From Diplosphaera chodatii (taxonomy: Eukaryota; Chlorophyta; Trebouxiophyceae; Prasiolales; Stichococcaceae): DNA of 64,000 nucleotides. Position 1 is the stretch's first letter, and each line of letters begins with the position of its first letter. Location of the stretch: NCBI GenBank assembly GCA_032358165.1, contig JAALGY010000031.1:2666001-2730000 (forward strand). The letters are read 5' to 3'. Made by a program: the position numbers and the translations under genes. The notes under the pieces are model-generated. The model saw only the letters and a program-made list of their open reading frames with translations, did not search any database and was not told where the DNA came from. Positions 6,737-56,504 of this stretch are shown here, piece by piece.

Positions 6737-9700
6737 ATGCGCAGCAGCCGCAGCCGCGCAGCAGTGGCTCCGCTGCTGCGCTGGGCGGCGGTGCTGGCGA
6801 TCCTGGCATGCTGCACGCTGCGGGTCAGCACGGCAGCGGCTGCCGGGGCGTCAGACCATCTGAGGCAGCTCCATGCCCTGGGGGCGCACCTGCCACAGCC
6901 AGTGCACGTCGCAGCCCCTTCGCCGGCAGATCCGCCGCCTGCAGCCGGCGCAGGGCCCCGCCGGGCGCTGCGGTCCTGGCAGAGCGCTTTGTCAGCGAGG
7001 CGGCATGCGTGGCGAGGTGCCCTGCAACAACCGCAGCCGCCGCAGGCCCCAGCGGTGGCACAGGCCCACCAGCAGTGGCGCAGCGTGCTGCGGCGGCGAC
7101 GGCAGCGCTGGCAGGCCGCGCTGTGGGCTCTGGCACGGAGCCGAGCGGCCGCAGCCCCGTCGCAGGGCGGCGACGCTCCTGCTAGCAGCGAGGACCACCA
7201 CCACAGCAGGCAAGAAGGCAGCGCACGCCATGTGGCGGCCAGGCTTGCAGCAGCCAGCGTGCCAGTCGCCAGTCGGGCGCCCACCACAGCGGAGGTTTTC
7301 CGCTTGGCAGCGACCGCCGGCGTGTCCGACTGCCCGGCGGGCACACGGGCAATCGCGGTGGCAAAGTTGCGCTTCGTGGGCAGGACAGCTGGAGACGCGG
7401 ACAGCCTGGCGGACGTCAGCGCGGGCATCAAGGCCTGCGCCGCGGACTTGCTGTCCCTCAACAAACTCCAGACCGCTGTGACGGTGGGACCGGCGGCACC
7501 AGCCGACACCTTCAACCTCACGGGCCCAGGATGCACAGGTCGTGAAAGGGGCGTCACAGCAGCACGGCGCCTGCTCCAGAGCCAGGGCAGCCAGACCGAC
7601 AGCTCAGCGGCCCCGCCACTAAGGGCACAGCAGCAGCCACCAGCAGCGCAGTCGCCGCCAGCGCAGCAGGGGGCGCAGCAGGGAACCGACTTCTCAGAAT
7701 ACGCTGCGCTGGACGCAAACCTCACGTACTGTGCATCCACAGCCAGCCAGTCCATCAATTTGGAGGTCCCAGAGTATTCGGCGCATGCGCTGCTGGACGA
7801 CTGCCTCTCCGCACGCAGCCTGACGGTGGGTGACTATCCCTGGGGCGTGACGCCCTGTTGACTGTGGCATCTTCTTGTACGACAAGCGCTCTGGTGCACG
7901 TGCACCCAGCTACCACTGATCGATCTCCCCTTGCCAATGCTGCAGCTGCGGATCCTGACCAACCAGTACATCGTGTTGCCGGCTGCGGCCGGGTACCTGC
8001 TGCCCTCTGGGGCGCCTGGCTATACCCATCCCCGCGGCTTCACTGCGACGATTGGGGTACGGTCTCATCATGGTCATGGCCATTTCCACCAGGCCCTGCA
8101 CGGCATGCAATGCACTTCTGGTCGCACCAGATTGCTTGCATACATGTCGATCAAGCATGCCTGATTGACTCTCACGTAGCCTGAGCCTGTGCAAACGTGT
8201 TGCGCAGTTGCAAGGCGGGCTCGCGGTCGCGCCGTCGCTGCAGCAGCAGACCGCGATGCTGAGCGTGCTGACGGAGCAGCTGACGTCCTCCGCGACGGGC
8301 CTCGCGTCCGTGCGGTGGCTGAACCTCACCTACTGCCCGGTCACCAGGCAGAACACCTTCAACGTGGGCGTCACCTCTGTGGGCCCCACAGCAGCCCTCC
8401 AGCAGGTGACATGCTGCCTTGTTGCATGACCGTCAAATATGGTTTTGGTGTCCCATATTTGTGACTATTTGAACAGCTTGCATCTGGGACACCAAAGTGT
8501 CCTGCCGACAGTCCTGCGGCGGCGTGACTGTCGTCGCAGCAGCTGGCGCTGTGGCCTGCATGTCTCGTGAGGCATCCTGCGGCAGCGGGGATGGTGGCCA
8601 CCTGCTTTGTCACCCACCGTGCAGCGGATCAAGGAGGCGCCAACGCGCATCGCCCAGCTGTGGGACCTGGCCGGCCTGGGGCTCAACTTCACGGGCCTGA
8701 GCGTGGTCGAGACCCCGGGGCTCACGGTGCCGGGGCAGCTCGCCGCTCTCGGCGTGCGGCTGGAGAATTCGACGGCCGTCCTTGAAGGGTGAGCCGACCA
8801 CTCCGCCAGTGGTGTTTGTTATGTTGATACTGTGTCGCGGCAGCTGCCCTCTGTTTTTGTGTCAGGCCAGACCTGCAGTGGGCCTTGCTGCTTGTGTCAG
8901 ACTGATTGACGGCTGGCTGTATCGGCAACAGCCCACAGGGCTTACCATGACCGTTGCCAAGCGACATACTGCTGCAAGAGCACAACGACATTTTCATCTC
9001 CCATGCAGGAGTGGCGACAGCAGCAGGGATGTCCTCTCCTCAGGGGAGATCGCCGGAATTGCCGTGGCAGGAGCTGTGTTCCTGCTCATGCTCAGCGCCA
9101 TTGCAGGTACGTCATGTCACCCTCACTGGCCACTCCTGCAGCCAACTGTGCTTGCAGTCACCCCGCTGTCATCAGGTGTAGACTGTTCAGTGCCATGTGC
9201 AGCTGCTCCTTGAACTCCGACATTTGCAGCATGTCAGACTGGTGGCGTGTTGCACCCTGTTCCACAGTGCTCGGCTACCTGCTGTGGCGGCGGCGCGGCA
9301 GCCGGCGGGCGTCCCCTGCCGGGTCCCCTGAAACGCCCGGCGGCGACGGCGGCAGCCAGGCAGTCGGCCTGGGCAGCCGCAACGGCTCGTCGCTGGACCC
9401 CAAGGTGCTGCAGATGGCGGAGGCGTGGGTGGGGTACACCCCCGTGGACAACCCCCTGCTGCGCGCCGGCAGCGCCAGCTCCCGCGCCCGCCTCATGGGC
9501 GCAGGTGCGCCGATTCAGAGTCCCCAAAGTGCCCCAAATTGCATTACGTTCTGTTCAACGCCCACAGTTTGCCCAGAGGTGTCGTCATCGCCTGAGCAGT
9601 GCTTGGTTGTGTGGCATGAGTGCGGCCCAGAGAGTCTGCTCTCCCTGGTCCTCATAGAAAATCCTGCCCAAGCCCATACATCCCGAAAGGTGACCGCCTG

Positions 9701-12700
9701 ACGGCCGTGCTGAAGACGACACGCGTTGCTGTTTCGCGAGGGGTGCTGGCCCTGCTTGCTGCAGGCGACGACTCGGCGCAGTCCATCGCGGCGCAGGCGA
9801 CGATGGGGCGCACCGACCTGTTCGTCAGCGGCTGGGACATCAGCCCGGAGGACGTGCAGATCTGCCGCAGCTCCGAGGACGGCGCCTCCATCTGCCTGGG
9901 CTCCGGCCAGTTCGGCAAGGCGCGGCCGCCCTCATGTTGAAGACAGTCTGCACTTGGGAGGCCCCTGCCAGATGGGTGCTGCCCGAATGCCTGGGCGATG
10001 CGGTGCAACCGCTGCAGCGCCCCAGCTCTGCATGCTGTCCCCAGGCAGCGCAGCGGCGCTTGCAGCGGGGGCGCGGTCGGAGCACCTGCTGCAGGTGGTC
10101 TGACATGGTGTCTGACATGGTGGCGTGGGGCTTGCAGGTGTACAAGGCATTGCGGGCCGGCGTGCAGGATGTGGCGGTGAAGTTTCTGCACCGCACCAAC
10201 GCCGAGGACCTGCAGAAGTTCATCGAAGTGAGAGTCCCTGCCGCTGCTTGTGACCCATCACAGAGGTCTGAACAGCCCTGAGCTTTGGGCTACGCACACT
10301 ATTGTAGCTGCGCTGCTGTGCACTCAAAGAGCAAGTCAACATGAGGAGGAAGTCACGTGCGGCGCTCACTCCTGCTCTTGGTGAGGCTGCAGGAAGTCAG
10401 CATCCTGAAGTCGCTGAATTACGACAAGAACATCGTGCAGTTCTACGGCGCGTGCATGCGCCCGGGGCAGGACCTCATGCTGGTCACTGAGGTGCGCATC
10501 CTCGTTGGACTCAAACCTGGACCCGCCCCAGCAACCAGATGTCTGTAGCTGTGGGAGTTTATTCCATTGACTCCAGCATTTGTGCAGCTATCACAGCCTG
10601 CTGCGCCCATCCCGTCGATGTGGGGACGCAACACAGGTTGCTGCTGCACCATGTGCAGGAGGCTTGAGGAGACATCAGCATGCCTCCCAACGTTCACTGT
10701 GACTGAAATCCTCGACCCTGTTGGCGCAGTACATGGCGGGGGGCGACCTGCGGGCGGCGCTGGACAAGGACGGGCGGCGGGAGCTGGTGTGGGAGCGCAA
10801 GGGGCAGCAGGTGGCGCTCGACATCGCGCGCGGCATCCACTTCCTGCACTCCCACGACGTGCGGGGGCTGCTCTGCAGTGCTGCCTTGCCGTGGACGACA
10901 GTGGCACCTGTAGCAGCTCTCATGTCGCTTGTGAAGACACGCCCGACTGACGAGCCAGCTGTACATGCATTCCCTCCCGCCCGATGCCGGGTTCAGTGTG
11001 TGGATGGCCAGCCTGCCGCCTTCCACCGCGCCATCGCTGCATAGCCTGCGCTGTATCGGGTGGCAGCTGCAGGACGGCCTGCGTCGGGCTTCTCACGTTT
11101 CCAAGCTCTCCTGCAGGTCATCCACTGCGACATCAAGTCCTCCAACGTGCTGCTGTCCGACGACTGGGGCACCGCCAAGGTGGCGGACGTCGGCGTCGCG
11201 CAGCTGCTGGGCAACTACAACCCCGACAACGTCGGCTGGACGTGCGCTCTCGCACCCCCGCACCCCCCTGGAGCACCCATGCTCCGGCATGACCTGCCAA
11301 AGACACTGCAGGAGAAACCCACAGACACTTGATCTTGCCATACTACACGAAAGCTGTGCGGACGCCAGATGCACGCCATCCTCATGTTGCGTCTGGATGG
11401 TCCGTATTGGGGATATTTTATAGCCCACCTCGAGTGCTTCTGAGCAAGCGTGTCCCCTTTGGCAGGTTCTCGTACGCGGCGCCGGAGCTGCTGCTCGGCC
11501 ACAGCTGCACGTCCAAGGTGTCCCATAGCTCGCATACTCCCGCCCGCCCTGCGCATGCCGCCTTGGGCCCTGCGCTGCGTGCCCCATCTTACTCACTACC
11601 TGTCAGGGCTGGCCAGCCACGAGTGCCTGGCCCTGCTTTCCGTCTGGGTATTCATACCTTCTGCAGGCTCACCTGTGGCACACCGCCGAATCCATGCTGT
11701 CCCGTCCCGCAGGTGGACGTGTACTCGTTCGGCGTGGTGCTGTGGGAGATATGCACGGGGCGGGTGCCGACGCGCGGGCGGCTGGCGGACCCCGAGGTGC
11801 CGGGCGACTGCCCCGCCGACATCCTCATGCTCATCCGGGAGTGCATGCAGGTGAGCCTCGCGCTGCTGCCCAACTGCACTGCTGGCAGCGGCGCAGCCGA
11901 ACTCCGGGTCATGCCGGTTGTTATTGCGGTGCCGGTGACCCTGCGGCTGAGTCCGGCCCGCTGGCCTGCAATGCCTTGTCGAGATTGGCCTTTTTATTGG
12001 GATTATCTAAGCTAGAGTCTTGTCGGGTACCGACCTTGGGTCGTGCAGATTTGCTTTGTGCATCTTGAGCTGATGTTGTGTTGCACCTGTGCACGCAGGT
12101 CCTGCCGGACTCGCGGCCCGACATGAAGCACTGCTTCGACCGAATCAAGGTGCGGCCCCGCTGCGCCCCCGCGCCGCAGACGCTGCCGTAGACGCCAGCA
12201 GCACCTGTGTCCTTGGCTGGTCACTGCACAGCATCGCGGCAGCTTGGCCACGCTGCAGGCTGCCCCGCTGCTCTATTTCACCCCTGGAGCGTCACAGTCA
12301 AGAGGGCGCCATCCGTGACATGCTACAAAGCCGTTCTGCAATCCCGAGTGCCTTTCTGTGCGCACGCAGTCGACGTTCTTCCGGCGCCGCTCGCCCGACT
12401 TCCTGCGCTCGGCGAGCTACAGCGACACGCGCGGCATGGCCGCCGCCAGCTGGGCGGCGCCGCCGCCGCCGCTGCCGCCCCGCTTCCGCTCCGCCAGCTT
12501 CGCGGGGACGGGCCCCGCCGGCGTCACCGCCAGCCAGTCCGGCCCGCTGGCAGGTGCGGCCGCCCCTGGTTCCGCCGGATCGCCCTGATACCAAACGCGG
12601 TGGTGTGCGTGTAAGCACTCGTTGGTCCATTGGCCGTGTGCTTCGTGCTGAAAAGCAGCGTGCTGAGCTGTGCCCGCACTGTGCCAGCGCCTTATCCGCC

Positions 12701-17289: not shown

Positions 17290-20200
17290 TCACGTGACGT
17301 GGCACAGGGGACTGCGCCGAGCCGGCAGCGTGTCACCGCTGCTGGCGGCCTTGAAGCGGGGCTGCGGCGTCGACTGCCAAGGGGGAATGACGCCCGAGTA
17401 GCCCGAAAGCCGTCGAACGGTGGGGTTGCTTCCTGCTTCCACTTCCCCTCCGCTGCCGGCAGCCATGGCAGCGGCTGCAGGCATGCCGGTGCTGCTGCTG
17501 CCGCTCAGGCTGCGCACGGTTTCCAGGGGCGAGCTCTGGCTGGCACGCACTGCCGCTGAAGCATCCGGCGGGGTTGGCACCGAACCGGCAGGCGGGGGCG
17601 CCCTGAGCTCCGTCTCTGCAGCCACCTGCGCACAGCGCTGCCCAGGTTGAACCTGCTTGTTCAGGGCAAGGACATCGTGTCCGGCACCAGCTGCTGCTTG
17701 CCCAATGCAGCAAATACAGATCAATGCTGCGGCTCATTGTGAAAACTGGCCGTTGAGGTCACTGCAGCTTGCGAAGTAGACGTGTCGACATGGAACTTTG
17801 CGGGGCCCCACCTCCGGGCTGAAGGTCTCCAGGGGCCCAGACATGCGCCGTACCTGGTGGCGCCGCAGCCGCTCAGCACGCACGACCGCCTGTGACCATA
17901 CATGCTGGAGTCAAGCGCACCAGAGCCATGTTGATGATATGGTGACTCGGCACCCTCATGCTGTGCCATCTCACTCCAGCATGCCATTTCAGGCACCAAG
18001 CTTGGTTCCAACGCTTCTTATGCGGACAGCAGGCAAGAAGCCTGCTATCTTGGCAAGTGCTGGGGAGGTGACAGCAGCAGCACATGTTGTATGGCTTGAC
18101 ATTCAGCCGCGCGCATCTGTCAGGGAGGTGCTGCTTGTAAGATGGGACCGGGCGGTACCGTCAAGTGACAGGAGCACTTGATGAAGGTTCAGGCATCTGC
18201 TGACCTGCAGGCTGTCGGCGGACTGCGACCCAGCAGTCACACTCATGACCATGCCATCGGGACCCCCGCTGATCTTGAAGCCGCCAATGTCGTCGAGGTT
18301 GTCGCTGACAGCCCTCCTACAGACCACAAACCACTTCATGGCTCATTGCCTGTAGTCGCATGCATTTTTCCTTGGTACGGTTGAATGCTGTAAGCCGTGT
18401 GTCTGCTCGATCAGACCTTCAGCGACATAGGTGGGTGTGGTTCGGCGAGCAGCAAGCTTGTTTGCCGCAAGTGAGCAGCAGCTGAGCGGGCAATCTGGAA
18501 GTGCAGGTCCTATGGATCACCTCATGTTGACAGTGCCGCTGCGCCCGCTGCAGCTCAGCAGCGCCGTGGTCCGGTTGAAGGACTCGGCAGACATCTGCGC
18601 TGCAAGCGCAGCCGGTGTGCCCGGCTCTGACAGGCTCCCTGCCTCTGGCAGCGCATCTGCCTCTGGGCCAGCCACATCTGCATGAAGCCAGCACCCAAGT
18701 AGTGAGGGCCGTACTTGTGGAGTTGCCATGGACCGCTGTAGCTTGAGGCATGACCGGGGACTTGCAGACGCTCCATGCCAAGGGCTGGCGTCCCGTATGC
18801 CGACAGCAACGTGTGACGCTGCTACAAGGTGGGTGCACGACCCGTGCACGACCCGTGCACCCACCCTGTGCTGCAGACGCACCAGCGTCGCCAGTACTGC
18901 CGCCGCTGCCGCCGCGGAACGTGCGCAGCGCGTCCCCCAGCTGCAGCTGGCCGGCCGAGGGGCGGAAGGTGCGGCTGCGGCGGCGGGGGGACATCGCCGC
19001 CAGCGAGGCCGGCTCCACCATGACCTGCACGCAACCGGCAGATGGTCGGGCCCCGCCTTGTGGTTGCCACATAATGCCTTTCTTCACCTTGCCTTGGTGC
19101 CGGTGCCGTTCATGCCTGGAGCAAGTGCGTGTTGATACATGGATACATTGGCTGCAGCCCCTGCGGGTCGGGACCCGTTTTGTGTGCACATCAGCGCATT
19201 CGCAGGCACAGCGCAGCCACCGGGACACGCGCCTCTGGCGCTCACCTCGGACACCAGCGCCGCCAGGCTGCCTGTGGTGCGGCTGGGCTGCGGGCGGGCG
19301 GGCGCCATGCTCCCGCCGCCGCTGCCGTCAGCGGCCCCTGCGCCGTCGCGGGTGCCGGACACAGCGGCCAGGCTGCCGTCGGTGCTGCTGCGGCTGCAGG
19401 TGGCGGGCGCCAGGGCGCAGCCCGCTGTGCACGCCGCCCGCAGCCTGGCGAAGCACTCCTGCAGAATGCAGTGCGATGCGTCTGTCAGCAATGTGCGCGT
19501 CGTGAAGCTGCACAGCTGTCTTGCACACATGCACATGTTGCAGCAAGGAGGCTGTGCTGTTGCTGCAGTGTGCAGGGCCGCCAACAGGGCATTAATTGCG
19601 TTCTTGACGACACCGAATCTCGGTAGCGCAGAGGCTGTCGGGTGATTGCTACGCACCTTTGCTGTGGGTCGCTGCGCGGGTTTTGAGGACGTGCACTGCT
19701 GGATGAGGGCCCACACATCGCCGGGGCAGTCCTCCGGGGTGGGCGGCTGCAGCCTGCCGCTGTTGTTGCGTGCGCAGCCCACCACCATCTGCAAATGTGA
19801 AGCAACATGCGGGATCAGCTGAAGAGGGTTGACGGCGTATCACCTCGCGAGTATGCCGAAATACCAGCCACGGCTCCAAGCAGCAGAAGCGTAGTGTAGC
19901 ACCCCGAGGCTAGTTAGATGAACACCTCTGGTTGCACGTGCAGCAGAGAACACTCAGCCTGCAAAGGAGCAAGCGCACCAGCCACAGGCAGTTGCCAAAG
20001 GCGGCGACGTCGCCGGCGGCGTTGCGCGGCGCGGCCCGCTTGCCCAGCAGGTGCGCCAGCCCCGAGGTGGACAGCTTGGCGGAGTCCAGCTCCCGGCTCA
20101 GCAGCACGTTGCGGGCCTTGATGTTGCCGTGCACCACCTGGGCCACGGTTTAGGTGCTATCACATGGACAGCGCATGGTGTCTGGCATGTCTGCCACGTG

Positions 20201-21349
20201 CACTGGGCCATCTCGCACAGCGCAGCATGCCACAGCCAGGCTGCAAGTCCCCAAAGTGAGTGAAGCACGAGTGAGGACCAGACTGAATTTTCTGGCAGCA
20301 GCGTATGCCGCACCCCATTGGAGTGCAGGTAGTACAGGGCTCGGGCCAGGTCCAGTGCGAGGGTGCGCCCGTTGCTGTGCCACTGCAGCTGCCCGAGCTC
20401 ATCGTGCGCAAGGGCGCTGCCCAGATCGCCACCTGCACCACCGACAGCGCTGTCTGGCACACGCTATTCGCAGTGGTAACATCAGCAGATGTGATGGCAC
20501 AACCGAGTTTGGAATTTGTTACGCCGTGCTGAGTGGCCCCATCGATGTAGCCTGATGTATTCCTCAGAACATGCGCACCTTCCATGAACTCGGTGACGAG
20601 CATGGGGTCAGCCCCCTCCCGGATGCAGGCCCCGTAAAACTGCACGATGTTGCCATCGTAGTTCAGGCCCTTCAGGATGCCCACCTCCTGAGCAGGGCAG
20701 GACCCACGCGATCAGGCATCACCGCTTGATAGCATGCCCTCCATACATAATCCCAGACAAAGGTCACAGTGCGGAGCGGCACATGCGAGATCGAGGATGT
20801 GCAACTGCAATGTGCAAGGCGCACATCTATCAGGCGGTGCAGCCTCTTGCCGCTTGTGCGTTGCAGCACTTTCACGGCCACCTCCTGCACGCCACCACGC
20901 AGCGCCTTGTACACCTGCCCGTGCGGCCCTGCGCAGCCGGACGCAGTGCTCAGGTGCCAAGCATCATGGCTGCGGCGGCAGATGCAGCAACAAAGTCATT
21001 CCTGCTTGACGCTGACATCCATATGCATATCGCATTCCGGTTGCAAACAGACGCAGAACTGCAGCAGTGTGCTCACCTGAGCCGAGCAGCCATGGGGTGC
21101 CGTCTGCATGACGGCAGAACTCGATGTCCTCTGCCGCGATCATCGACCCCTGGACGCGCTGCTCTGTGGCGTCGGTGTCGGACGAGCTGCTGCTGGCGCT
21201 GCCGGCTCGGTCCAGAGTCGTGCCCTCGCCATTGCTCGTGCTGTTGCGGCTGTGCGCGGCATGCTGCGGGCTGACCGGCAGTGACGAATTGCCATCGTGT
21301 GCGCGGCGGCTCCGGCGCAAGCGGAATGCTGCGTAGTAACAACACGATC
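17290..21349 (-). CDS. Kinase B: pseudokinase paralog lacking ectodomain and membrane exon (5' end unresolved)
   Basis: Eleven exons on the complement: 21077-21349, 20825-20928, 20579-20687, 20314-20432, 19979-20137, 19657-19788, 19246-19458, 18883-19024, 18521-18677, 18205-18316, 17290-17625. They give 1856 nt (618 codons plus stop, with one base supplied by an unseen 5' exon), in phase at every junction. The gene starts with the RLRRSRR segment that follows the membrane helix in its paralogs; nothing upstream resembles their ectodomain. The glycine loop (GSGPHGQVYK) and VAVKVL lysine are kept. The catalytic loop reads HGNIKARNVLL, with Asn for the catalytic Asp. The DFG position reads STSG, and the activation segment with APE is deleted, jumping from GLAHLLGKR to GDVAAFGNC. 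The fold may persist as a non-catalytic scaffold or decoy. Intact frames argue against simple decay. An upstream exon supplying the start codon must exist but was not found. Confidence 0.75.
18828..18865. repeat. Perfect 12-bp inverted repeat in an intron of kinase B
   Basis: GGTGGGTGCACG (18828-18839) is the exact reverse complement of CGTGCACCCACC (18854-18865), with a 14-nt spacer that contains another GTGCAC. It lies just outside the exon ending at 18883 (minus strand), inside the intron 18678-18882. Confidence 0.85.
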
Positions 21350-28600: not shown

Positions 28601-29301
28601 TCAATGGTGACGTTGAAAAGGCTGTATGCGCTGTTCAGCGAACTGCGCATCGCTTCCTCGAAGCGCGGGTCCGTGTCAGACACCTGCGGAGACCGCGCTG
28701 CTGTTGTACGCATCTTTTACGGGGATCAGCTGCCAGGTGCAGCGGCATGCAAGGCTGGATTGAGGACGCTCCACCCTGCACTGACGATGACCAGGCAGCA
28801 GGGGATGCAGCTGTGTTGCAGGCGGGCAACATGGCTGTGCAGGCGCTCCAACAAGTCTACCTGGGGACCGACCAGGCGGTAGTAGCTGTCGGTCAGGTGC
28901 ACCGCCCTGCCCGGCGGCAGCTCGCGGCTGGTGACCACATCCGCCAGTGCGTAGTGCTCTGCAGCGCAACACCAGGAATGTGCAGGAATTCCAGGCCGAC
29001 ACTATATGCGGCGGGTCTTCATATATAGGACCCGGCTGCACGGCCAGCCGCGCATTGGCACAGTCCATGCGGGGCGGGCCTAAGCCCTGCCTGTGCCATC
29101 GTCGGGGGCGCTAGCAACGGCGTGCGCCTCGTTGAGCTCGATGTCGGCGGCGAAGCTGCCAGACGGAGCCCTGAGCCCCCTCCTGCTGCGTGTGCTGCCC
29201 TGGGGCCGCAGCTGCAGCGGCTTAGTCATGGCTGCGCTGCACGCTGCGATGGCAGCTACAAGCAAGAAGGCGATCAGCGGTGCCGCCGCTGTACGGCGCA
29301 T
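22671..29301 (-). CDS. Kinase C: receptor-like TKL-type protein kinase, about 942 aa, 18 exons
   Basis: Complement exons: 29091-29301, 28861-28958, 28585-28683, 27621-27728, 27258-27371, 26848-27033, 26548-26664, 26341-26390, 25954-26084, 25702-25776, 25401-25520, 25122-25225, 24821-24929, 24523-24641, 24176-24300, 23978-24065, 23701-23838, 22671-23507; 2829 nt, in phase. Begins with a signal peptide (APLIAFLLVAAIAACS). The ectodomain aligns exon by exon with kinase E. A His/Gly-rich stretch (GGHDGHHHGHLS) directly precedes the membrane helix (VVGIVVGVVAAVLLVVCLF), then RRRRR. Kinase domain: GASGKVVK, VAVKQL, HGDMKSRNVLL, ADIGLA for DFG, YAAPE; catalytic residues are present. The Ser/Ala/Gln-rich tail ends in GMYSAFE, resembling motifs in kinase E. 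The first intron would start with GC (after 29091). An extra exon between 28584 and 27729 cannot be excluded. Confidence 0.82.
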
Positions 29302-42800: not shown

Positions 42801-45636
42801 AATGATTGCAGTGGATTGCCAGTTTCAGAGCGCAGCATAGGACAGCAAGCGCAGGCGGCACGAGAGTGTTCCTGCACCGATTTCGATTGGGGAACACTGT
42901 GCAGCTGCGCACCCAGCAAGAGCAGCAGGCTGGCGACGAGGCCGCCCATTGCGCGCACGCGCTGCCGCGGTTGCCCTGAACACTTTGGGTCCGCAGCGTC
43001 CCCCGGGAGGCGCACAGCCTCCGACATGAAGCGGCGTGCGTAGCCGTGCCGCCGCCGCTCCGACCACTGCACCATGGGCAAGGCCACCAAGGTCATCAGC
43101 GTCTCAAGACTGCTACAAAGCATCACCTGCGTGGACACAAGCTACAGACAGATGCGCGGCATGATAATGCGTGTTTGTAGCAGCAGCACAGCACATCGGT
43201 ACATGACCTGCACACGGTCCTACTGATGATGGAACATTTGTACAGTATGCATTCAGACACTGTGTAGAAGAGTGTCACACGACACAAAGTACGACTCACC
43301 ACAGCGTAGGGCGCCAGCTCTGGAGCTTCTCGAATGGTGGCAATGCTGATGCTGCCAGACATGTATGGCGCTGCAGCTGCTGGCAGCCTGTGGCGCATCT
43401 GCTGCTGCAGAGCCTGCATGGACAATGCACAGAGCATGCTCTCAAGCTGCCTGTCAGCGGGCCTAGCACGTCCACATGTCCGTTTTGAACCAGGATTCCT
43501 TCTTCCAACCATGTGTGTATGCTGGGGGTTTGGTGACAAGGATGATGAGCTGCATGGAGCCAGCACCTGTGTTTTCACGGTGCCAGGTGGGTGGCTGGTT
43601 GCCACCGCAAAGCTGGCAACGACACCGCCGGCGCCGCCCGACAAGGCTGTTAGCATGCGCAGCTGCACCGACAGCATGTCCGGCACGGCGGCTGCCAGAG
43701 CCGACTGCAGCGCTGTCTGCGCTCTCCCCAAGCCCAGGCACTGCGCCAAGCTCCCCTCAACCTACAGGGCATCAAATTGTATGACACTGCAGACGCAAGC
43801 AGCTTTTACAGTCCAGGCCATAACACATGATGCTCTGACGTTCATGCTGCAGTCGGGCAAGGTGCACGCTTCCATCGACAACATGTGTCCAGAGGGATGG
43901 AAGAGCTCACCAGGAGGTCCACAACAAAGTCCGACTGAGCCGCGTGCGAGTACGACCTCGGCAGGCGCATCAGCACGGTGTAGCCGCCCGGCAGCAGCTC
44001 CGATCCCTCTGGCACCACCTTGACCTGTGATGTCACGACTGTGTGCATTCGTGGTATTGATTCACTAGCCTGGTTCTCTTGGGGAGTGGCCTGAGGGGTC
44101 GTTGACAGGTTGCCACACACCATGGAAGCGCACATGTCACACCAGAGTGGCACAAAACATGTCACCTCGTAGCCGAGCGTCTCCAGCACCTGCGGCACCA
44201 TCGACGCCAGTGCCGCCCCGCTGTGCGGCTGCACACCAGGGGCGCGGCGTGTTCAGCACCCGCACCCGTCCAATGGTAGCAACTGCTACCGATAACTTGA
44301 GCACTGTGCATACCACCTGGTGCCACTGGCTGACAGGTACAAAATTTGCTTGTGTGCATCAGACACCAGGTCAGGGCATGCGAATGAGCGGTCAGCACTT
44401 CAGTCAGGGGTTGCTGAAGCAGTAGTGTCACCCTGGCGCTGCGCGTGGCCCTGCCACTCGCATCAATGTACGCTGTGGCTTTCACCTCCACTGCGGCTAA
44501 ATTGCTGCTGAGCAGGCCTGTATGTAGCACGGTGGCAGGCTCACACAAGTGGCCACCAGGTGGCGGGGTCCCTCTTGGCACATCGATTGAGCAGTCCAGT
44601 GCAGCCCAGGAGGCGACAGAGGTGCTGCCTCAACTGCACACTGCGTGGGCCTGCCACACGCTGTTGCGCTTGCTGCAGCAGTGTACCTGGACACGCGCTG
44701 CTGGCGCAGCCTGACCGCTCAGCGTCCGGCAGCGAGCCGGCGCCTGGCGCAGACAACGCTGGCGCTGGTCTTGCGGTGACCTGCATTGGCATAGCTTGCC
44801 CTCGATTCTTTGTTCGTGGTACCATGTCATGGCATGGTGACACACATGCGTGCTGGGGTCAACATACAGCTTTTACAAATCAATCATTCAGCCTGCTGCA
44901 GCTTCACCTGGGTGCGCAGCCGGAACACCTTGTAGTACGCATCCACCCCCTGCTGCAGGGCCTCCAGGAGCCGAGGCGTGACACCCTCCGCCATGTGGCG
45001 CCCGTACAGCCTGAGCTGCATGCGCACCAGCGGCACCCAGAGCCCCGGCGGCAGCTCGCCGGGCAGCAGGATGCCGGCCATCGGCATCGTGGGCGGCCCT
45101 GGAGCAAGCACAGCGAGGACTGCACCCTGCCTTGGTCATCAGCACTCAATATGGCATCCGTTCGCGTGACAGCGTGACACATGCGGTGCAAGTACGCTGT
45201 GATGTGCGCTAGCTGTCGAGCAACACTCAAGAAGGACGGTGCGTGGGCATGTCGTCACCAGACGGAGAGCATCATGTGGCCGTCATGCAATGCCACGGTA
45301 GGCACCTTCAGCCGGCACCTCTTCTTCGAGCACCGCGTACAGCGCCGCACTGTGGTTGAAGTGCACCTCAGGCTCGGCAGCACCAGCTTCGATTGCGAAT
45401 GGCCTGCCCGGTGTGCTCTTTGGCAACAGAGGCACATCTGCCCAGCCTTGTCCCGAAGCATTCTGGGGACATGGCGGCGGGATTGGCTCATGCTGCGGCT
45501 GCAAGTGCAGAGCCAATGGCAGCACTCCAGAAGCTGCAGCCCTTCCCCAGCAGCTCATCATCATCAGCAGCTGTGCAGCTGCCGCAGTCACTGCTGCTGC
45601 AGGCGAGGTCCCGTGTCGCCAATTACGCACAACCAT
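39836..45636 (-). CDS. Kinase D: receptor-like TKL-type protein kinase (partly resolved model)
   Basis: Paralog of kinases A, C and E. Exon 1 (45306-45636) starts with a signal peptide (AAAVTAAAAQLLMMMSCWG). Exon 2 is 44908-45098. The ectodomain continues through segments near 44400-44500 (VEVKATAYIDASG), 44170-44220 (PQVLETLGYE), 44030 (VKVVPEGSELLPGGY), 43600-43750 and 43340-43420, which match kinases C and E in order. A hydrophobic stretch near 42915-42960 (MGGLVASLLLLLG) is the likely membrane helix. Kinase motifs: GSGTFGTVLK, VAAKLI, HGDLKSSNVVL, CDVGLA for DFG, YAAPE; catalytic Asp and Lys are kept. The last exons are 40269-40375 and 39836-40175; the tail is short. Exon edges between 42300 and 44900 are not resolved: one join seems to need an extra exon, so a defect cannot be excluded. 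It is divergent from kinase E. Confidence 0.7.
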
Positions 45637-47933: not shown

Positions 47934-50900
47934 ATGACGGCAGCCAGGCCGGTCCGGCTGTGCAGGCTGCTCTGCACGGCGGCGCTGCTGCTGCTCTGTG
48001 CCGACTTGTGGCCGGCTGCAGCGACTGATGGCGGCGGCATCGGCTGGGGTGAGCGCGGCCACGGCAGCGGCCGGCGCCTGCGGCAGGCGGCGCCAGCGGC
48101 AGGCCCTGTAGATGCGCCAGCGACGGTGCCGCAGGCGGCCGACACGGCGTCCGCTGCTGCAGCGCCGAGTGCCGCACCGGCGGATGTGCCGGCGCCCGAT
48201 GCAGCATCTGCCGCCGCGCTCGCCGCCGCTGGTGGCCCCGGTGCGCACTTGCATGACACGGCCCAGTCATATTGCCCGTGAGACAACAGGGGACATGCAG
48301 TCCGCAATGCCCCTCCGGCGCGTCACATTGGAACGCGTTGGCTGGCGTCGAATAAGGCCGGTGCTTCGTGCCGCAGATGATGACCCGAGCTCCGTCGAGG
48401 GCTCGGACGACGCCGACGACTTCAGCACGCCCACCATGTCGGTGCTGAAGCCCGACGAGCTGCCCGGCGGCTACTTCGCGCCCTACCTGAACCTCACCTG
48501 GCGGGTGCGTGACAGCTTGAGCCAGTACCTTAACCAGGCAGCAGCGTAATCGGCCACGCATGCAGAGCGCCCTGCTGATGCTTGCCTGAGCAGATTTGGC
48601 CCTCTGCTCAACAAAACTGGCAAGCCTTGTGACGTTTGCTGCCGAGGTTGTCACGGCTGCCAGGTGCTGATGCAGTCCAAACAAGGTTCGCAGAGCAGTG
48701 CCAGCGGCGCGGCAATCCAGACCCATGTGCAGTGGCATATGACGCTTGTGCTGGCCTGGCGCAACAGATCGTGGGGCCGGACACACGCCCCGTCACGGCG
48801 GACCTGCGGACGGCCATCCAGCGCGCGTTCGCCTCCACCACCTCCCTGAACAAGTTCGAGTCGCAGGTCACCGTGACCGCGGCGCAGGCCGCGCCGGTGA
48901 CCCGCATACCGACGAACCCCCTGCGGACGGGCACCACCCCAGGTGCGGGGCCGGGCATTCAAAAATCACAACAAGCAGAGTGGGGCTTGCTGATGGCTAG
49001 GGCTCGGCCTCCTGATGCCCTCCAGTGTGAGATGACCCGGCGGACAGCACTGTGCAGCGGCATGGGGCCCTGCTGCGTCGCTGGCTTCCAAGCTCTGACT
49101 CTGATGAGCGCATTGCACACACCGTGCGACATCGCTGCAGGGGGGAGCGCGGCCCAGGTGCCCGCGCCGCCGCCGGGCGCAAAGGCGACGACCCGGCGGC
49201 TGCTGCAGGGCGCCCCGCTGGGCGGCAGGCTGTCGGCCTCCAGCAGCCGCGCAGCGAGCAGGCTCACCCGCCGGCTGCTGCAGGGGGCCCTGCCCCCAGG
49301 GGCGGAGGGCCCCAGCAGCACGCAGCCGCCGCCGCCGCCGCCGGCGCGGACGGAGATCCGCCCCGAGAAAAATGCCACAGGTGCCACATCTGATTGGTCA
49401 ACAGCGCCTGACGGCACGAATGCACGGGCGCTGCAGCTTGCGGTTGGTCGGCAGCGCAAATAACCTGGCAGGCTCATGGCTCATGGCACCCTTTCAGGCT
49501 CGAGGCCCTCGAAGGCTGTACAAACATGCACAAGTGTGAAATTTACTGCGCAGTGCGGAGCGCTTTTCACGCAGTCGACGCACACGTGGTGGTGGGCTTC
49601 ACGCCCCAGTCGACCTTCTCCCGCACGGGCCTGGTGCGGACGAGCGACGGCTACCAGCGCCGGGCGCTCATCAGCTCCCTGGAGATATTTGGCTACGAGG
49701 TGCACCAGAACGGATGGTGCACGGATGTTGCATGGATGGACGCAACATACGCATGTGCAGTGTGATCAATGTTGGATGGATGCCTTGGGCTGCCAGACAG
49801 TGTGCACATCAGCCCCTCTGAGAGCCGAAGCACTGCTCACGGGATGCTGCTTGCTGTCCACAGGCGGATTTTCTGCCGCTGATCATCGACTTTCCCGCCA
49901 ACTACATCACACTCGCTGCACGGCTGCCGACGTACGACATATCGGCGGGGACCAGCTTCCACGCGCACCTGACGGTGTGCCCGCCCTGCCGTTGCGCCAA
50001 AGTGTGGATATCTTGAACGACCTCCGCATGCTTCACCAACACCCATACAACAGACACGTCCCTACGACTTGGGCGCACACAGTTTGAGCTGCATGTTGGC
50101 ATGCAGCGGTGCCATGATGCAGCCTCCTATCTGCCCTGCGCTGACGCCCGCCGTTTGCTGTGTGTGACAGTAGTGGGGTGTCCACCTGCAGTTCACGGGC
50201 GCCGGGGCGGCGCCCTTAGCGGTGGAGGGCCAGACCGCGCTGCAGGGACTGGTGGTGAGCGTGGTGCCGCAGCTGCTGGCGGCGCACTTCACGGGCATCG
50301 TGGAGGCGGCGACGGGCGACTACACCCGGGTGGAGCTGCAGGTCAACACCGCGCACCGCAACGGCACCTTCACCCCGCAGGTAGGGCCCAGGGTGTGGGC
50401 ACGCTGCACGGCACCTATGAGAGTGTTGGGGGGACACGGCTGCCGCTCGCAGGCTGCACCAGAGCAGCCGCCCTGTTTCTGCACGCCCTGGGGGTTGCCG
50501 TGCTGTGCCGGCTCTGCTGCCGGCGGATTTGCTTGGCGCTGTGCCTGGTCGACCACCGGCCTGGCGGCCAGCGCCACGCTGTTTCAGGCAGCGCTGCCAG
50601 GGGTCGCATCCCCACTGAGCTGCCGGCTGCCGCCGTCCAGGAGCTGACGGCGGTGCTGCTGCCGAGGCTGGTCGCAAACCTGGCGTTTGTGAACCCGCCC
50701 CTCAACGTGACGATGGCGGCGCACTACGGCGCCGGCGCGCCGGACCCCAGCCCTGCGGTGCGTGCAAGCCTCGAGGGGTCTGGCGCCGAGCACGATGCTT
50801 GGCAGGCTGTGGCATTGCCGCAATTGTGCGTCCTGCATGCTGTGCGATGCACGCAGGGCCATGATGTTGGATGCGCATCTGTAAAGCTTGCAGGTATCTG

Positions 50901-53900
50901 CCTGACACCATCTGCCGAGTGGCTTCAACAGTTGCACGCTGAGCCTCGGCAGCGAAACTGCTGTTGTGTGCTGTGCCTTTTGGCCCATCACTGATCGCAA
51001 GGAATTCTACCATGCACAGGAGGCCAAGGTCATCGCAGCCCGCAGCCTGACAATCCTGCCGCTCAGGCACGCCTGACACTGCTGCTGCTTCATTGAGCTG
51101 GAGCATCACATCCTTGTCGTGCAACTAGCAGCGCACCTGCCTGCCCAGCATCCCCCATGCACCAGCGCATTGAGCCATCCCAAGGAGTGCGGGCTGTTGC
51201 ACGGTTGACAGAGCAGCTGCTGGGTGTCCATGCAGTGACATCGGCATCACCAACGCCACTGTGGTGGATGGCGGCGCCGACATCGATTTGTCGCCCGGGG
51301 CCATTGTGGGCATGGTGCTCGGCAGCCTGGCAGCCATGCTGATCGCCATCGTGCTGCTAGGTACGTTGCAACGGCTGGCCAGCCTCTTTGCTGGCGTCAG
51401 ATGGCAGGTGCACGGCGCTCGGAGCAGGTTGTGGCAGGGACCACGACCCCGGCATGTGGTCTGCAGCATGTAGCGAAGTCTGCGCTTGCCCAGTCACCGC
51501 ATCCGTGCTGCGTGCTCTGCAGTCATGCTTGGTAGGCGACGCGGCTGGTTGGCGCTTCCCAGCCTCCCAGGTGCACCAGCAACCACAGCCGCCAGGGGCT
51601 TCTGCTGTCGACATGGACATATAGTCTGTGTGCGACTGTGGATTTGGCGCCGTTCCACGTTGGCCTCAGAGTGACTGACTTTCTTGAATCCTGCAAACTC
51701 ACCTTGCATTTCCCACTCTGCAGGCACCAAGGATGGCGGCATGGGCGGCTTCGATGCCAAGCTACAGGGCTTCGCCATCGCGCCGTCAGACATCCAGATC
51801 TGCCGGCGGGACGACGGCACCGAGTGGCTGCTGGTGGGTTGACAGATGACACTGCTAACCATGGTGTTTCCTGTCCATGTGATGCGCAGCGCTTGCTCAA
51901 AGCACTGGGTAAAACTCAATTTGTAAGGCCTATGCGGACCCTGTTGTTTCTGCTGCCGCAGGGCCAGGGCGCCTTTGGCAAGGTGTACAAGGCGCTGCGG
52001 GGCGGGGTGCAGGACGTGGCCGTCAAGCAGCTGCACCATACAGGGGATGGCCAGCTGGAGCACTTCATCGAGGTGTGCTCATCTTAGAGATGTGTCTCTC
52101 ATCAGCAACCTGCAGACACTACACCCACAGCTGGCCCGTCAGGCGCGCGCTCAGCATGGCACTGGCTGCGCCGGCTGCCTGGAATGCCGGCGGCCCTGCG
52201 ACGGCAGGTGGTCTGATGGAGAGTGTGGTGCTGCAGGAGGTGTCCATCCTGAAGGGCCTGAACTACGACCGCAACATCGTGCAGTTCTACGGCGCCTGCA
52301 TCCAGGAGGGCACCGACCCCATGCTGGTCGTTGAGTACATGGAGGGTGGGCACGCTTCTTTGGTCACATGCATATGCATTTGCGCCATCGCAAAGCTGAC
52401 GAGATAGTGCAGCGCAGCATAAGCATGTTGACTGAACGGCTTGGCGTGCTGGGGGAGGCATAAGATGTCATCTCCATCTGGGGGAAATGTCTGCATTCAG
52501 GCGGTGACCTGTGCACGGCGATCGCCGCTGACGACTTCGGGGAGCTGCGGTGGTACAACCGCGGCCACCAGGTCGCGCTCGACATCGCGCGCGGCCTCTA
52601 CTTTCTGCACTCCCACGACGTGAGCCTGTGCAGCGCGTCGCCTGTGCCTCTTGCAGATGCGCATGATGACTACCAGCACGAGGCCTTGTATGCTGAGGTG
52701 TTGCATCAGTTTGCACCTGATCGCGCACATCTGATGGGTCCCGCATGCTCTGGATGCAGGTCATGCACCTGGACCTGAAGACGAAGAACGTGCTGCTGAC
52801 CGCTGACATGGTTGGCAAGGTGACTGCTGCACCACCTGCAGCCACGCTGTGCACTTTGTGGGGTATCCTGCTGCACAGTCGGCGCTCAAGTGCTGAGCCC
52901 TGGCTGCAGATCGCGGATGTGGGGCTGGCTCAGATGGTGGAGACGGGCGCCGAGCAGGACGACATGCTCGCCTGGACGTGAGCAGCCCTTTTCGTTGCTG
53001 CTTGCACACCCCTGCTCATGGCATGCCCCGCTGCCTGCCTGCCCAGCTGCTGACCCGCCCTGCCGTGCACTGCCCGCTGCTGTCTGCCGTCACAGCAAGA
53101 CCTGCAGCTGCCATGATGGATGGAACGCAGTGGCAGGGGCGCCCCGCTCACCTGAGTCCTCAGCAAGCAGAGCCTGTGCCGGCGTGCAGGTTCGCCTACG
53201 CGGCGCCGGAGGTGCTGGTGCAGGACCCGCGCGGGCTTTCGGCCGACATCTACAGGTGTGCACATAGTCTCCGCGGTGCCTCCTGTGCGCTGGAGTCTGG
53301 CCATGGGTTCGTGCCGTCATCACAGTTGAGACACAGGCAGAGGACAGACAATGCGCCGGCTGAGACGTGCGACACCAGGCAACAGCTCATCTGGCAAAAG
53401 GTGTATTTTGGGGCATGCAGCTTTGGCGTGGTGCTGCTGGAGATCGTGACGGGGATCATGCCGGTGACGCGGGGCCGGGTGCCGCCGCCCACCGTGCCGG
53501 AGCAGTGCCCGCAGGACGTCTGGGACCTCATCCAGCGCTGCATGCTCACCAAGCCGGAGGACCGCCCCACCGCCAAGGTGCGGACCCGTCCTGTGCGGAA
53601 ACAACGCGGCAGTGAAAGGGCTGGCGAAATGACTCCGTGGTCCTGAACTGTGGACGCTGCCTCGGGCGGCAATATCTCCTGGATGCCTGCTTCACGGACT
53701 GCAACCTGCAAGGCAAGGAGGTGGCCAAGGCCCCTCGACATCATCCACACACCATCAAACACCATCAATCTGTTACAGGAGTGCTTCGACGCGATCACGA
53801 TGTCGGTCCAGCACTCGGTGGTGGTGGGCGCAATCGACGGCAGCAGCGCCGCGGTGGCGACCACGGCGGCGGTGGGCCGCTTCAGGGCCTCCACAGTGCC

Positions 53901-54960
53901 GCACCCCGCCCCCCGCAGCTGGGACGGCGGCTCGGCAGGTGCAGCAGGACCTGTTTGCTGACACTGGTGTGGGCACTTGGCGTGGCACTTGCACTGGGCG
54001 TGTCATGAGCTTGCTGTTCCATCCTGATTGCTTTGTTTTCTGGCTGTCTAACGGCGCGTGTAACTTGATGTGTGATTATGATGCTGCAGGCGCCGCAGCC
54101 AGGGACGGGTTCGTGCACAGCGCGGCCGGCTTCCTGTCCGACGGCCGCGCGCCGGCGCTGGAGGACGTCAGCCCGGTCCGCGGCGGGGACGCAGAGTCCA
54201 GCAAGGCGCGCACCGCCAGAGCGGCAGCTGCCGTCTGGCTGCATCATATTAACAACATCATATATCCGCCTATAAATCATATAAAACGCGTTGCTTTCTG
54301 CATGGCACATGCCTCTGCCTTCGCAAAGATGGGTGTAGGGTTGTTGGATTTCAGGAACACTTGTTCTGCAGTGCTGCTCTAGTGGCTCATGCTCAGGGAG
54401 CCAAGGATCTTGTGACTGCAAGCACCAGCTAAGTTCCGCGGCCGTGCTGCACTGCTTCGCTGCTCAGTGGTGCGGCTTGATTGATGCAGGCCACCAGCCT
54501 GCCGGCGGACGCGGACTCGGGGTTCCAGGCGCAGCTGGTGGCCTGGCGCATGCGCGAGCACAGGAGCCGGCAGCACCACCTGCCCGCCAGCGGCAGCAGG
54601 AAGCAGTGGCAGGCGGACCGCCGGGTGCGGTCCCAGGAGGTGCCGCGTGCGCCGAACCCCTTTGCCGATGCCAATGGTGGCGTGGGGCCGCCGGGCTTTG
54701 GCGGCGGCTTCCCGAACCCCTTTGCAGCCGAGCGCGAGCGCAAAGCCTCTGACAGCGCTCCTGCAGCAGAGGCGGCAGCCCATCAGGCGGCAGCAGACAG
54801 CAGCGGCGCCAGTGGTGGCAGTGCCGAAGCTGCCCCGGCAGTGGCGGCGGCTGTTGTGGCGGTGCCGTCAGACATAGGCGATCAGCAGCAGGGTAATGCA
54901 GGGCAGGTGGTGCAGCAGCCGCCGCAACATCTGCAGCAGCCTCCAATGCAGCATCAGCAT

Positions 54961-55026
<66 letters not shown>

Positions 55027-56504
55027 GAGGAGGAGGAGGAGGTGCACCGACATGCGGAACCCCTGCCGACGAAAATGCACCCAGAGCTGTCTGCTTCCTC
55101 CCCGCTGGACCAGTACTTCCTGTCGATGGGCTCGGTGTCGCAGCCGTCGTCCGACGGCCTGACCAACGGCAGGTTCGGGCTGACGGATGCCGCGGCTCTT
55201 GGCGACGCTGCCAAGGTGAGCCCCCGCTGTTGTTGTTCCTAGGCTGCAGCTCTGACAACTATCATGCGATGCTGGACCGCTTCATGCTGACATGCGTCAT
55301 GCGGCTGCTGCAGGTGGCGGAGGAGACCGCGGAGATCGAGAGGTTCGTTCGTGCAGCTGACGGCCCAGCAGACGAAGCAGCGGTGTCGGAGCTGCACCTC
55401 GGCGACCTGTACAGCGCATTTGAGCGGCAGGACTCCCTGGGGCCACAGCAGAACGGGTTCCCAGCCATTCTGCAGCAGGAAGCGGCCAATGGCCATGCCC
55501 CCGCCAGCCAGTCAGCCAGCGACAGTGCTTCCAGTGCGGCGTCTGCCGACGGCTGTCAGCCCGGCGCCGCTGCCGGCACGGGCGGACGGCTGCTGCCCGG
55601 CGGCAGCGCCGACAGCAGCAGCGACGTGTATGCTGCGTTCAGTGGCGGCATGCAGCCCAGCACCCCTGTGGCGGACCCCCCTCGGATGTCAGATCGCCAG
55701 CTGCGGGCCGGCAGCAGCGGCAGCGCTCTAAGCACCGGTGACCCGCTGCCGGGCGCGCGCCATGTCAGCCTCAGGGGCGATGACATATATGCAGCATTCG
55801 GGGCCGCGGATGAGGCGGGGCCAGCTCCCGAGGCGCTGCTGCCGCCGCCTGCGCCGCTGCCGCCGCTGCAGCCGCCCCAGGCTCGGCCGCAGTCTCTCAG
55901 CAAGTCCCGGTCGAGCAGGGAGGCCCCCCGGCTGCAGCCAGCCAAGGCCCCCTGGACATCCGCGCAGCTGCAGCTGGGCAGACGCCAGCTGAGGCAACAG
56001 CAGCCGCAGCAGCAGGGGCTGCCAGCCAACGGGCATGGCCCCCACAAGTCGATGGGCGCCTTCAGCACAGCCGCCAAGCAGCCTGCAGCCGTGGTCGTCC
56101 CCAGTGGCACCCAGGGCGACGGCAATGCTGCAGCCTACGCGGTGTACCAGAAGTACCATCAGGCGCACCCGCTGCCATTGACGGCACCGCCGCCGCACCT
56201 ACCTGAGCCGTCGGTGGACCCAGCGACACAGCCACGTAGCATCAACGATGCCACCTACGATGGGGAGGACGCCTTTGCAGTGTACGGCCACTTCTCAGAC
56301 GGCTCGCCGCCACAGCAGACGGTCGGGGCAGAGGATGGCAGCTACGCCGGCGAGGATGCGTACTCGGTGTATGGTCGCTTCACAGAGGGCGCACAGCCAG
56401 CGGCAAATGGACAGGAGCACGGAATGTATGCCGATTTTGCAGAAGCGCAGCAAGTGAACGGCCTGGAGGGCATGTATGCCGGTTTTGCAGGCGAGCGTGC
56501 ATGA
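47934..56504 (+). CDS. Kinase E: receptor-like TKL-type protein kinase with YxxF-repeat tail, 1524 aa, 22 exons
   Basis: Exons: 47934-48231, 48377-48504, 48768-48942, 49141-49380, 49575-49699, 49864-49974, 50192-50380, 50641-50757, 51020-51066, 51236-51360, 51724-51833, 51962-52072, 52237-52345, 52501-52619, 52760-52819, 52910-52977, 53190-53255, 53421-53577, 53779-53938, 54090-54232, 54490-55215, 55314-56504; 4575 nt, in phase. Signal peptide at the start (RLLCTAALLLLCADLW). The ectodomain has two RRLLQGA motifs in exon 4. Membrane helix in exon 10 (GMVLGSLAAMLIAIVLL). Kinase, about residues 555-785: GQGAFGKVYK, VAVKQL, HLDLKTKNVLL, ADVGLA for DFG, YAAPE; all catalytic residues present. The 740-residue tail contains a 21-codon CAG polyglutamine run and seven Tyr-x-x-Phe motifs (YSAF, YAAF, YAAF, YGHF, YGRF, YADF, YAGF). 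Intron 51067-51235 starts with GC. Start: the ATG directly before the signal peptide. Exon 3 could begin further upstream, since its frame stays open. Confidence 0.87.
54961..55023 (+). repeat. (CAG)21 trinucleotide repeat encoding polyglutamine
   Basis: Twenty-one uninterrupted CAG triplets inside exon 21 of kinase E, preceded by CAT/CAG alternation (His/Gln) and followed by CAA and a run of Glu codons. Expected to vary in length between strains. Confidence 0.95.

What the first reader, a model, noticed from the sequence alone, without database searches (positions are those of the whole stretch)
6737..56504. Cluster of five receptor-like kinase paralogs with an unrecognised shared ectodomain
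Kinases A, C, D and E carry a signal peptide, a homologous ectodomain, one membrane helix, a TKL-like kinase and a disordered tail; B is a derivative. The ectodomain is conserved exon by exon. For example, the segment before the helix reads EAKVIAARSLTILPL in E and EQQAVASGCCKTIITV in C, with the same phase-2 exon end. Another block has an alternating pattern ending in Pro-Gln (NGTFTPQ in E, LQEFGPQ in C). I recognise no known receptor module (no LRR, lectin, LysM or scavenger Cys pattern). Local duplication in both orientations, with divergence of the ectodomain, is what a sensing or self-recognition locus would look like. The function itself is inference.
Basis: partly seen in the sequence, partly recalled or inferred. 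Interest (0 to 1): 0.85.

Follow-up and report, generated by a model that had tools for sequence, protein, structure and literature searches.

The report
Algal receptor kinases with unrecognised ectodomain
A green alga carries a cluster of cell-surface receptor kinases whose outer, sensing part matches no known family in the databases searched here but is shared with other green algae, which suggests that such algae have more surface receptors than published counts list.

The parts
6737..12149 (+). Gene A: signal peptide and ectodomain exons 6737-7825, 7946-8056, 8208-8405, 8625-8788; membrane helix exon 9009-9106; juxtamembrane 9268-9504; juxtamembrane and kinase exons 9765-12149 (14 exons modelled; tail not modelled)
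   Evidence: phase-consistent model; counterpart on C41 (modelled to residue 875 of 912); external-profile hit 7.6e-13
19657..21158 (-). Gene B: kinase-only derivative, exons 21158-21077, 20928-20825, 20687-20579, 20432-20314, 20137-19979, 19788-19657; HxD reads HGN, DxG reads STSG, no APE segment
   Evidence: spliced alignment of the E protein over 18800-22300 matched only its juxtamembrane and kinase part; B against its C41 counterpart omega 0.11 over 235 codons: conserved pseudokinase
23701..29301 (-). Gene C: signal peptide 29301-29091; ectodomain exons from 28958 to 26341; helix exon 26084-25954; juxtamembrane and kinase 25520-23701; open frame of a low-complexity tail down to 22701
   Evidence: external-profile hit 2.7e-27
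40353..45636 (-). Gene D: weak signal 45636-45306; ectodomain exons from 45098 to 43300; exon with the likely helix 43126-42878; juxtamembrane and kinase 42694-40353 (exon end at 41426 lacks a proper donor in the model)
   Evidence: external-profile hit 9.1e-17, covering model residues 106-358
47934..53938 (+). Gene E: signal peptide 47934-48240; ectodomain exons 48377-48504, 48768-48942, 49141-49380 (RRLLQ linker), 49554-49699, 49864-49974, 50192-50380, 50641-50757, 51020-51066; helix exon 51236-51360; juxtamembrane and kinase 51724-53938
   Evidence: external-profile hit 2.7e-20; nearest external relatives P0001, P0002
54490..56504 (+). Gene E disordered tail: exons 54490-55215 (poly-Gln) and 55314-56504 with stop; nine Y-[AGSD]-x-[FYIVLM] motifs in the last exon; exons between 53938 and 54490 not settled
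   Evidence: exons; 38% identity over 77 aa to the tail of P0001, E 0.11; motif 9 against shuffle mean 1.06, 0 of 2000 reach

Best explanation
A, C, D and E are type I single-pass receptor kinases (TKL/TK-group, Ser/Thr-like catalytic loop) of a green alga. Shown by sequence: a conserved ectodomain family joined to a membrane helix and a kinase with the Lys, HxD and DxG (D-[VI]-G) residues, kept by purifying selection over dS mostly 0.2-0.5; the same layout lies in one open frame or one transcript-derived protein in relatives. Inferred: the ectodomain is two modules of beta-alpha-beta-beta-alpha-beta topology, glycosylated in A, C and E, the first split by a low-complexity linker that in A, C and E bears a dibasic RRLLQ motif (a possible processing site). 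It binds an extracellular cue, most likely a soluble or wall-derived ligand, so that receptors come together and the kinases phosphorylate each other and downstream partners. Local duplication in both orientations then gave receptors with different, individually conserved ectodomains, and B is a retained pseudokinase that could compete for or scaffold partners. The E tail with its repeated YxxF-type motifs would be a docking or sorting platform.
For: External-only profile recovers all four ectodomains, reversed controls fail. Shared intron columns and phases. Single-ORF relative L009 with ectodomain, helix, kinase and tail in a 1375-aa frame and complete MMETSP-derived protein P0002 of the same layout. 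Catalytic motifs. dN/dS. The 11 loci where L009's ectodomain matches (E<=1) are all kinase loci. Two AlphaFold models with different targets give largely the same order of strands and helices.
Against: No ligand, no biochemistry, no transcript from this species. AlphaFold confidence is poor (mean pLDDT 38.6 and 49.2), so the fold and the two-module reading are weak; the two halves match each other only suggestively (score 13.7; one of 40 column shuffles scored higher, over 29 columns). Some group-to-group profile comparisons were weak (A against the E and C/D groups 5% and 0.1%, C/D against the tandem proteins 33%). L009 itself lacks the HxD aspartate (HGG), so the family holds likely pseudokinases. 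D has a weak signal peptide. The helix-plus-juxtamembrane block of C shows omega 1.01 over 45 codons.
Confidence: 0.75

Rival explanations
1. The ectodomain is a highly diverged member of a known extracellular module of ferredoxin-like topology (SEA-like or similar) that sequence profiles cannot see; the receptors are then a new combination, not a new domain.
For: Predicted order beta-alpha-beta, linker, beta-alpha-beta, then in P0003 beta-alpha-beta-beta-alpha-beta; the linker sits between the second and third strand, where SEA domains (recalled) are cleaved.
Against: No SEA or other extracellular-module match in Pfam, none in PDB sequences, no G[STI]V[VI]V motif in 17 of 17 ectodomains. The Foldseek lists (best 50 of each search) show kinases or unnamed proteins and so did not test it.
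Confidence: 0.4
2. The cluster is a self-recognition or mating-type-like locus whose ectodomains diversify under selection.
For: Several diverged paralogs in both orientations; ectodomain omega is about 2 to 13 times the kinase omega; gene presence or absence in the neighbouring cluster.
Against: Omega 0.18-0.52 in the modules and 0.33-0.59 in the RRLLQ linker; all five genes kept in order on the second copy. Site-wise or within-species selection was not tested.
Confidence: 0.1
3. Wall or matrix integrity sensors: the ectodomain anchors to or measures the algal cell wall rather than binding a diffusible ligand.
For: Conserved ectodomains, long low-complexity Pro/Ala-rich stretches before and inside the ectodomain (seen); inference by analogy to land-plant wall sensors (recalled).
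Against: No wall-binding module recognised; nothing tests binding.
Confidence: 0.3
4. Gene-model artefact: ectodomain-like and kinase exons belong to separate neighbouring genes, or the loci are decaying copies.
For: No transcript evidence from this species; B and L009 have lost catalytic residues; one D exon border is unresolved, and the juxtamembrane exons of D' were not clearly recovered.
Against: L009 is one open frame; P0002 is one complete transcript-derived ORF; the models of A', C', D', E' show no stop; purifying selection.
Confidence: 0.03

Closest known systems
P0001 (metagenome, JGI) and P0002 (MMETSP transcript-derived protein)
   Same: Same ectodomain, helix and kinase layout; 38% identity over 68% and 32% over 97% of the E region searched; P0001 shares a block of the E tail
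   Different: Organisms not named in the output; P0001 is N-terminally incomplete; P0002 has a short tail without the Y motifs
[Myrmecia] bisecta kinases WJX72_004105 (P0003) and WJX72_010587 (P0005), hypothetical proteins with a kinase domain
   Same: Homologous ectodomain (part of the external profile; P0003/P0005 42% identical over 92 aa), helix, D-V-G kinase
   Different: Separate kinase subclade; P0005 has a shortened ectodomain
P0004 and P0006 (JGI metagenome kinases)
   Same: Same ectodomain family and kinase clade
   Different: Carry the ectodomain twice in tandem
Chlorella-type LRR receptor kinases (PMC3268121, passages read; Micractinium P0009)
   Same: Receptor kinases of green algae; the P0009 kinase lies in the same supported D-V-G group
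   Different: LRR ectodomain; the LxxLxLxx[NC] pattern is in 0 of 17 ectodomains here and a Pfam LRR hit in 0 of 11
Land-plant RLK/Pelle receptor kinases (BRI1, BAK1, SymRK in PDB)
   Same: Architecture; kinase similarity
   Different: Ectodomains of other families; best PDB kinase hits of E are JAK/Src-type as much as plant receptor kinases, so the subgroup is not settled

Membership tests
Receptor-like kinase (1-2 membrane helices plus kinase domain; definition read in PMC10834447 section 6) | kinase domain | tested here: met
   Five external members and six single-ORF relatives have PF07714 and PF00069 above cut-off; A, C, D, E keep VAVK/VAAK Lys, HxD and D[VI]G in their modelled kinase exons
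Receptor-like kinase (1-2 membrane helices plus kinase domain; definition read in PMC10834447 section 6) | membrane helix between ectodomain and kinase | tested here: met
   Hydropathy peaks 2.6-3.3 in A, C, E; D only 1.7-1.8, D' 1.9; no dedicated predictor at hand
Receptor-like kinase (1-2 membrane helices plus kinase domain; definition read in PMC10834447 section 6) | signal peptide | tested here: inconclusive
   Hydrophobic N-terminus in A, C, E (2.7-3.1), weak in D (1.8); no dedicated predictor at hand
Known receptor ectodomains (LRR, lectin, LysM, malectin, WAK, DUF26) | Pfam match in the ectodomain | tested here: not met
   None in 5 external full-length members at E<=5, 11 ectodomains at E<=1 or 6 single-ORF relatives at E<=0.1
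SEA domain | beta-alpha-beta-beta-alpha-beta fold | tested here: inconclusive
   Order of elements fits in low-confidence models; fold searches dominated by the kinase
SEA domain | GSVVV-type cleavage motif (recalled) | tested here: not met
   0 of 17 ectodomains; not all SEA domains have it (recalled)
SEA domain | Pfam SEA match | tested here: not met
RLK/Pelle kinase family | kinase groups with RLK/Pelle in a tree | not tested
   No land-plant kinase set at hand; PDB ranking mixed
Active protein kinase | phosphotransfer | not testable with these tools
   Residues present in A, C, D, E; lost in B

The most novel reading that the evidence does not exclude
Trebouxiophyte and related green algae hold a large, uncounted class of receptor kinases built on an ectodomain of a fold new to science, deployed singly or in tandem, with retained pseudokinase partners, so that surface receptor kinases expanded in chlorophytes independently of land plants.
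Probability: 0.4. Interest if true: 0.8.

Novelty: new variant of a known kind. Interest (0 to 1): 0.6.

Why it matters
The chlorophyte rows visible in the passages of PMC10868138 give one to four receptor-like kinases per species; one study quoted there found them in nine of 18 chlorophytes and the distribution is called patchy. Other papers point to more: five LRR receptor kinases in Chlorella (PMC3268121, passages) and an LRR-RLK expansion in green algae (PMC10834447, passages). Here one algal genome has the ectodomain-kinase layout at 15 loci (two homologous copies counted apart) plus five intronless relatives with a shorter or diverged ectodomain (two of them a near pair), and no ectodomain that I scanned matches a known receptor module. 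If general, chlorophytes have a receptor repertoire of their own that censuses by known ectodomains would not classify, which would give concrete candidates for how algae sense fungi, bacteria, each other or their walls.

Tried and rejected
Three searches of the large protein set: E region 105-640 gave 10 proteins, of which six carry the ectodomain by my profile; the Myrmecia P0003 ectodomain found only itself, missing its paralog P0005; a six-member profile returned 103 proteins, only two of them family members, and among the 111 proteins then in hand the ectodomain profile passed only P0001-P0006. So the spread of the family outside this genome is a lower bound. Two AlphaFold jobs gave mean pLDDT 38.6 and 49.2. 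Three Foldseek searches listed kinases or unnamed proteins in the 50 rows shown each, so they say nothing on the ectodomain fold. An internal repeat between the two ectodomain halves is suggestive only. Profile comparison with A alone was weak against the E and C/D groups (5% and 0.1%) and better against Myrmecia and the tandem proteins (85% and 79%); C/D against the tandem proteins gave 33%. Ten other window ORFs scanned against Pfam gave one hit. Two readings were downgraded: self-recognition by hypervariability and split gene models. Literature: (eight searches of the held open-access library; listings and abstract starts seen) showed no paper naming this ectodomain; that library lacks most subscription journals. 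Papers read: PMC10834447 (passages plus section 6, part 1 of 2); passages only of PMC3268121, PMC10868138, PMC6652019, PMC11523091, PMC11126685.

Limits of the counts. In the kinase tree the window E row was dropped by a length rule in my script; its C41 counterpart stood in for it. The Y-motif pattern was chosen after looking at the E tail; it is absent from the tails of P0002-P0006. Omega values are Nei-Gojobori pairwise estimates without standard errors, with block borders set by eye. The C41 models came from a spliced aligner guided by the window proteins: A' reaches residue 875 of 912 and has an extra intron in exon 1, E' has one spurious 7-base exon, and the juxtamembrane exons of D' are unreliable. 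The stretch of C41 opposite window bases above 58.1 kb was not fetched.
Full report
Setting. The window lies at bases 2666001-2730000 of contig C25 in an 85.6 Mb, 55-contig genome. GC of 2 kb steps is 57-74%. An ORF at 60981-62264 has an SBP-domain match above the Pfam cut-off (SBP proteins are a green-plant transcription factor family, recalled), and the named proteins nearest to E are from [Myrmecia] bisecta and Micractinium tetrahymenae. I take it as a green alga near the Trebouxiophyceae; no name was given.

The observation. An all-against-all comparison of six-frame ORFs found five paralogous kinase loci. Phases agree throughout; borders are GT-AG with a few GC donors; one D exon end remains unresolved. 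Three introns inside the ectodomain lie at the same alignment column (within one) and phase in all four genes, and others in two or three.

One gene or two? In the same genome an intronless relative (L009, match C25:2885851-2887908) reads a hydrophobic start, ectodomain, helix, kinase and tail in one 1375-aa frame. It resembles, exon by exon at 36-91% identity, an intron-bearing gene at C19:1772.8-1777.9k, so it looks like a retrocopy. Its HxD reads HGG, so it is probably a pseudokinase. P0002 comes from a transcriptome collection and is marked complete. Searching the genome with the L009 ectodomain at E<=1 gave 23 matches at 11 loci, all kinase loci; six of the 11 are weak on their own (best E 0.011 to 0.61). 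Five more intronless kinases (L010-L014; L013 and L014 a near pair) have helix and kinase with a shorter or diverged ectodomain that the external profile sees weakly (E 9e-6 to 0.034, the last below inclusion).

The second copy. Window bases 9-58102 align, inverted, to C41:214-274k at 72-90% nucleotide identity (49 blocks of 200 or more bases); the part opposite the window's last 6 kb was not fetched. A', C', D' and E' keep their exons with the small exceptions told under Tried and rejected. Ectodomain main block omega: A 0.20, C 0.28, D 0.42, E 0.18; module 1: 0.25, 0.32, 0.28, 0.52; kinase: 0.07, 0.10, 0.14, 0.04. The other blocks are looser: signal and N-terminal linker 0.49-0.64, RRLLQ linker 0.33-0.59, helix and juxtamembrane 0.47, 1.01 (C, 45 codons), 0.52, 0.14. 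dS is mostly 0.2-0.5 (0.17-0.88 over blocks). So the ectodomains are conserved coding sequence, less constrained than the kinases but not diversifying on average. B against B' has omega 0.11 over 235 codons although HxD, DxG and APE are gone in both: a pseudokinase kept by selection. All five genes are present on both copies. In a second cluster about 130 kb away C25 has four such kinase genes and C41 three; the one at C25:2519.5-2524k has no counterpart, 10.2 kb on C25 standing against 1.1 kb on C41. Strains were not available.

Loci counted. A, C, D, E and their counterparts (8), L009, the C19 gene, C25:2519-2524k, C25:2504-2510k, C25:2526-2532k, C41:420-426k and C41:395-400k make 15 loci with ectodomain and kinase matches. 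For the last four the ectodomain evidence is one short match each (E 1.7e-5 to 9.2e-5 in searches of 50 kb). Kinase relatives are many more, their ectodomains not examined.

What the ectodomain is. No Pfam match of substance: of 11 ectodomains one hit at E 0.0042 to an unrelated domain (Aft1_HRA), two at 0.17 and 0.26. Five external members and six single-ORF relatives gave only kinase models and sub-threshold matches, the latter in the kinase or near the helix. No NCBIfam match and no PDB sequence at E<=10. AlphaFold on P0002 and P0003 was poor overall, but much of the first module of P0003 reaches pLDDT 60-80. Both models give beta-alpha-beta, linker, beta-alpha-beta, then further strands and helices, which in P0003 read beta-alpha-beta-beta-alpha-beta with short, low-confidence inner strands. 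A dibasic RRLLQ-like motif is in 11 of 17 ectodomains, in the linker where I looked. Sequons number 4 to 8 per ectodomain except D and D' with none. The fold searches returned kinases. The fold is therefore open.

The kinase. The 26 rows from this genome, its C41 copy and their nearest relatives (several unnamed metagenome proteins) form one supported group (98/98) apart from three outgroups and a long Chlamydomonas eustigma row; 25 of the 26 read D-V-G or D-I-G in place of D-F-G, and B has neither. The LRR kinase of Micractinium belongs to this group, so this kinase type is paired with more than one ectodomain. PDB neighbours of the E kinase at E<=1e-25 are JAK, Src-family and plant receptor kinases: TKL/TK-like, subgroup open.

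The tail. The last exon of E has 13 Tyr, nine starting Y-[AGSD]-x-[FYIVLM]; shuffles average 1.06 and none of 2000 reach nine. E' keeps nine, L009 has four (p 0.0095), P0001 three (p 0.02); P0002-P0006 have none. A tail block matches P0001 at 38% over 77 aa (E 0.11 at a nominal database of 10 million). This resembles YxxPhi sorting or docking motifs (recalled), a lead only.

Literature. PMC10834447 (section 6, part 1) defines RLKs as proteins with one or two helices and a kinase and says that almost up to 70% of them have one of seven ectodomain classes. PMC3268121 (passages) reports five LRR receptor kinases in Chlorella as a separate lineage. PMC10868138 (passages) lists one to four RLKs in the chlorophyte rows I saw. 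PMC6652019 and PMC11523091 (passages) report kinase-family expansion in Asterochloris (52 members in families not further described there) and gains or losses in Trebouxia; this ectodomain is not described in what I read, though members could be among those kinases. Eight searches of the held library showed no paper naming it.

Verdict. The finding is real and somewhat larger than stated: a lineage-specific receptor-kinase class with an unrecognised, conserved ectodomain. The self-recognition reading is disfavoured. Ligand, fold and activity are unknown.

Noticed in passing
window 55314-56504 (+): Last exon of E repeats Y-[AGSD]-x-[FYIVLM] nine times, kept in the C41 copy, four and three times in L009 and P0001, absent in P0002-P0006; possible sorting or docking motif.
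   Followed up: partly
window 9-58102 against G000:C41:214-274k: The window has an inverted, collinear, diverged copy (dS mostly 0.2-0.5), and some kinase matches elsewhere also come in near-equal pairs: perhaps a hybrid or duplicated genome rather than ordinary alleles.
   Followed up: partly
window 19657-21158 (-): B is a pseudokinase without ectodomain or APE segment yet under strong purifying selection (omega 0.11).
   Followed up: yes
G000:C25:2885851-2887908 (L009): Intronless relative of an intron-bearing gene on C19, with degenerate catalytic loop: likely retrocopy that kept a 1375-aa frame.
   Followed up: partly
G000:C25:2519.5-2524k: Receptor-kinase gene present on C25 and absent from the collinear place on C41.
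   Followed up: yes
P0004, P0006: Metagenome relatives carry the ectodomain twice in tandem.
   Followed up: partly
kinases: The DFG motif reads D-V-G or D-I-G in 25 of 26 rows of the group, including the LRR kinase of Micractinium.
   Followed up: partly
window 60981-62264 (+): ORF with an SBP-box transcription factor match.
   Followed up: no
window 6900-7200 (+): The N-terminal part of gene A before the first module is rich in Arg/Trp repeats (RSWQSALSARRHAWRGAL, WRSVLRRRRQRWQAAL) of unknown meaning (seen).
   Followed up: no
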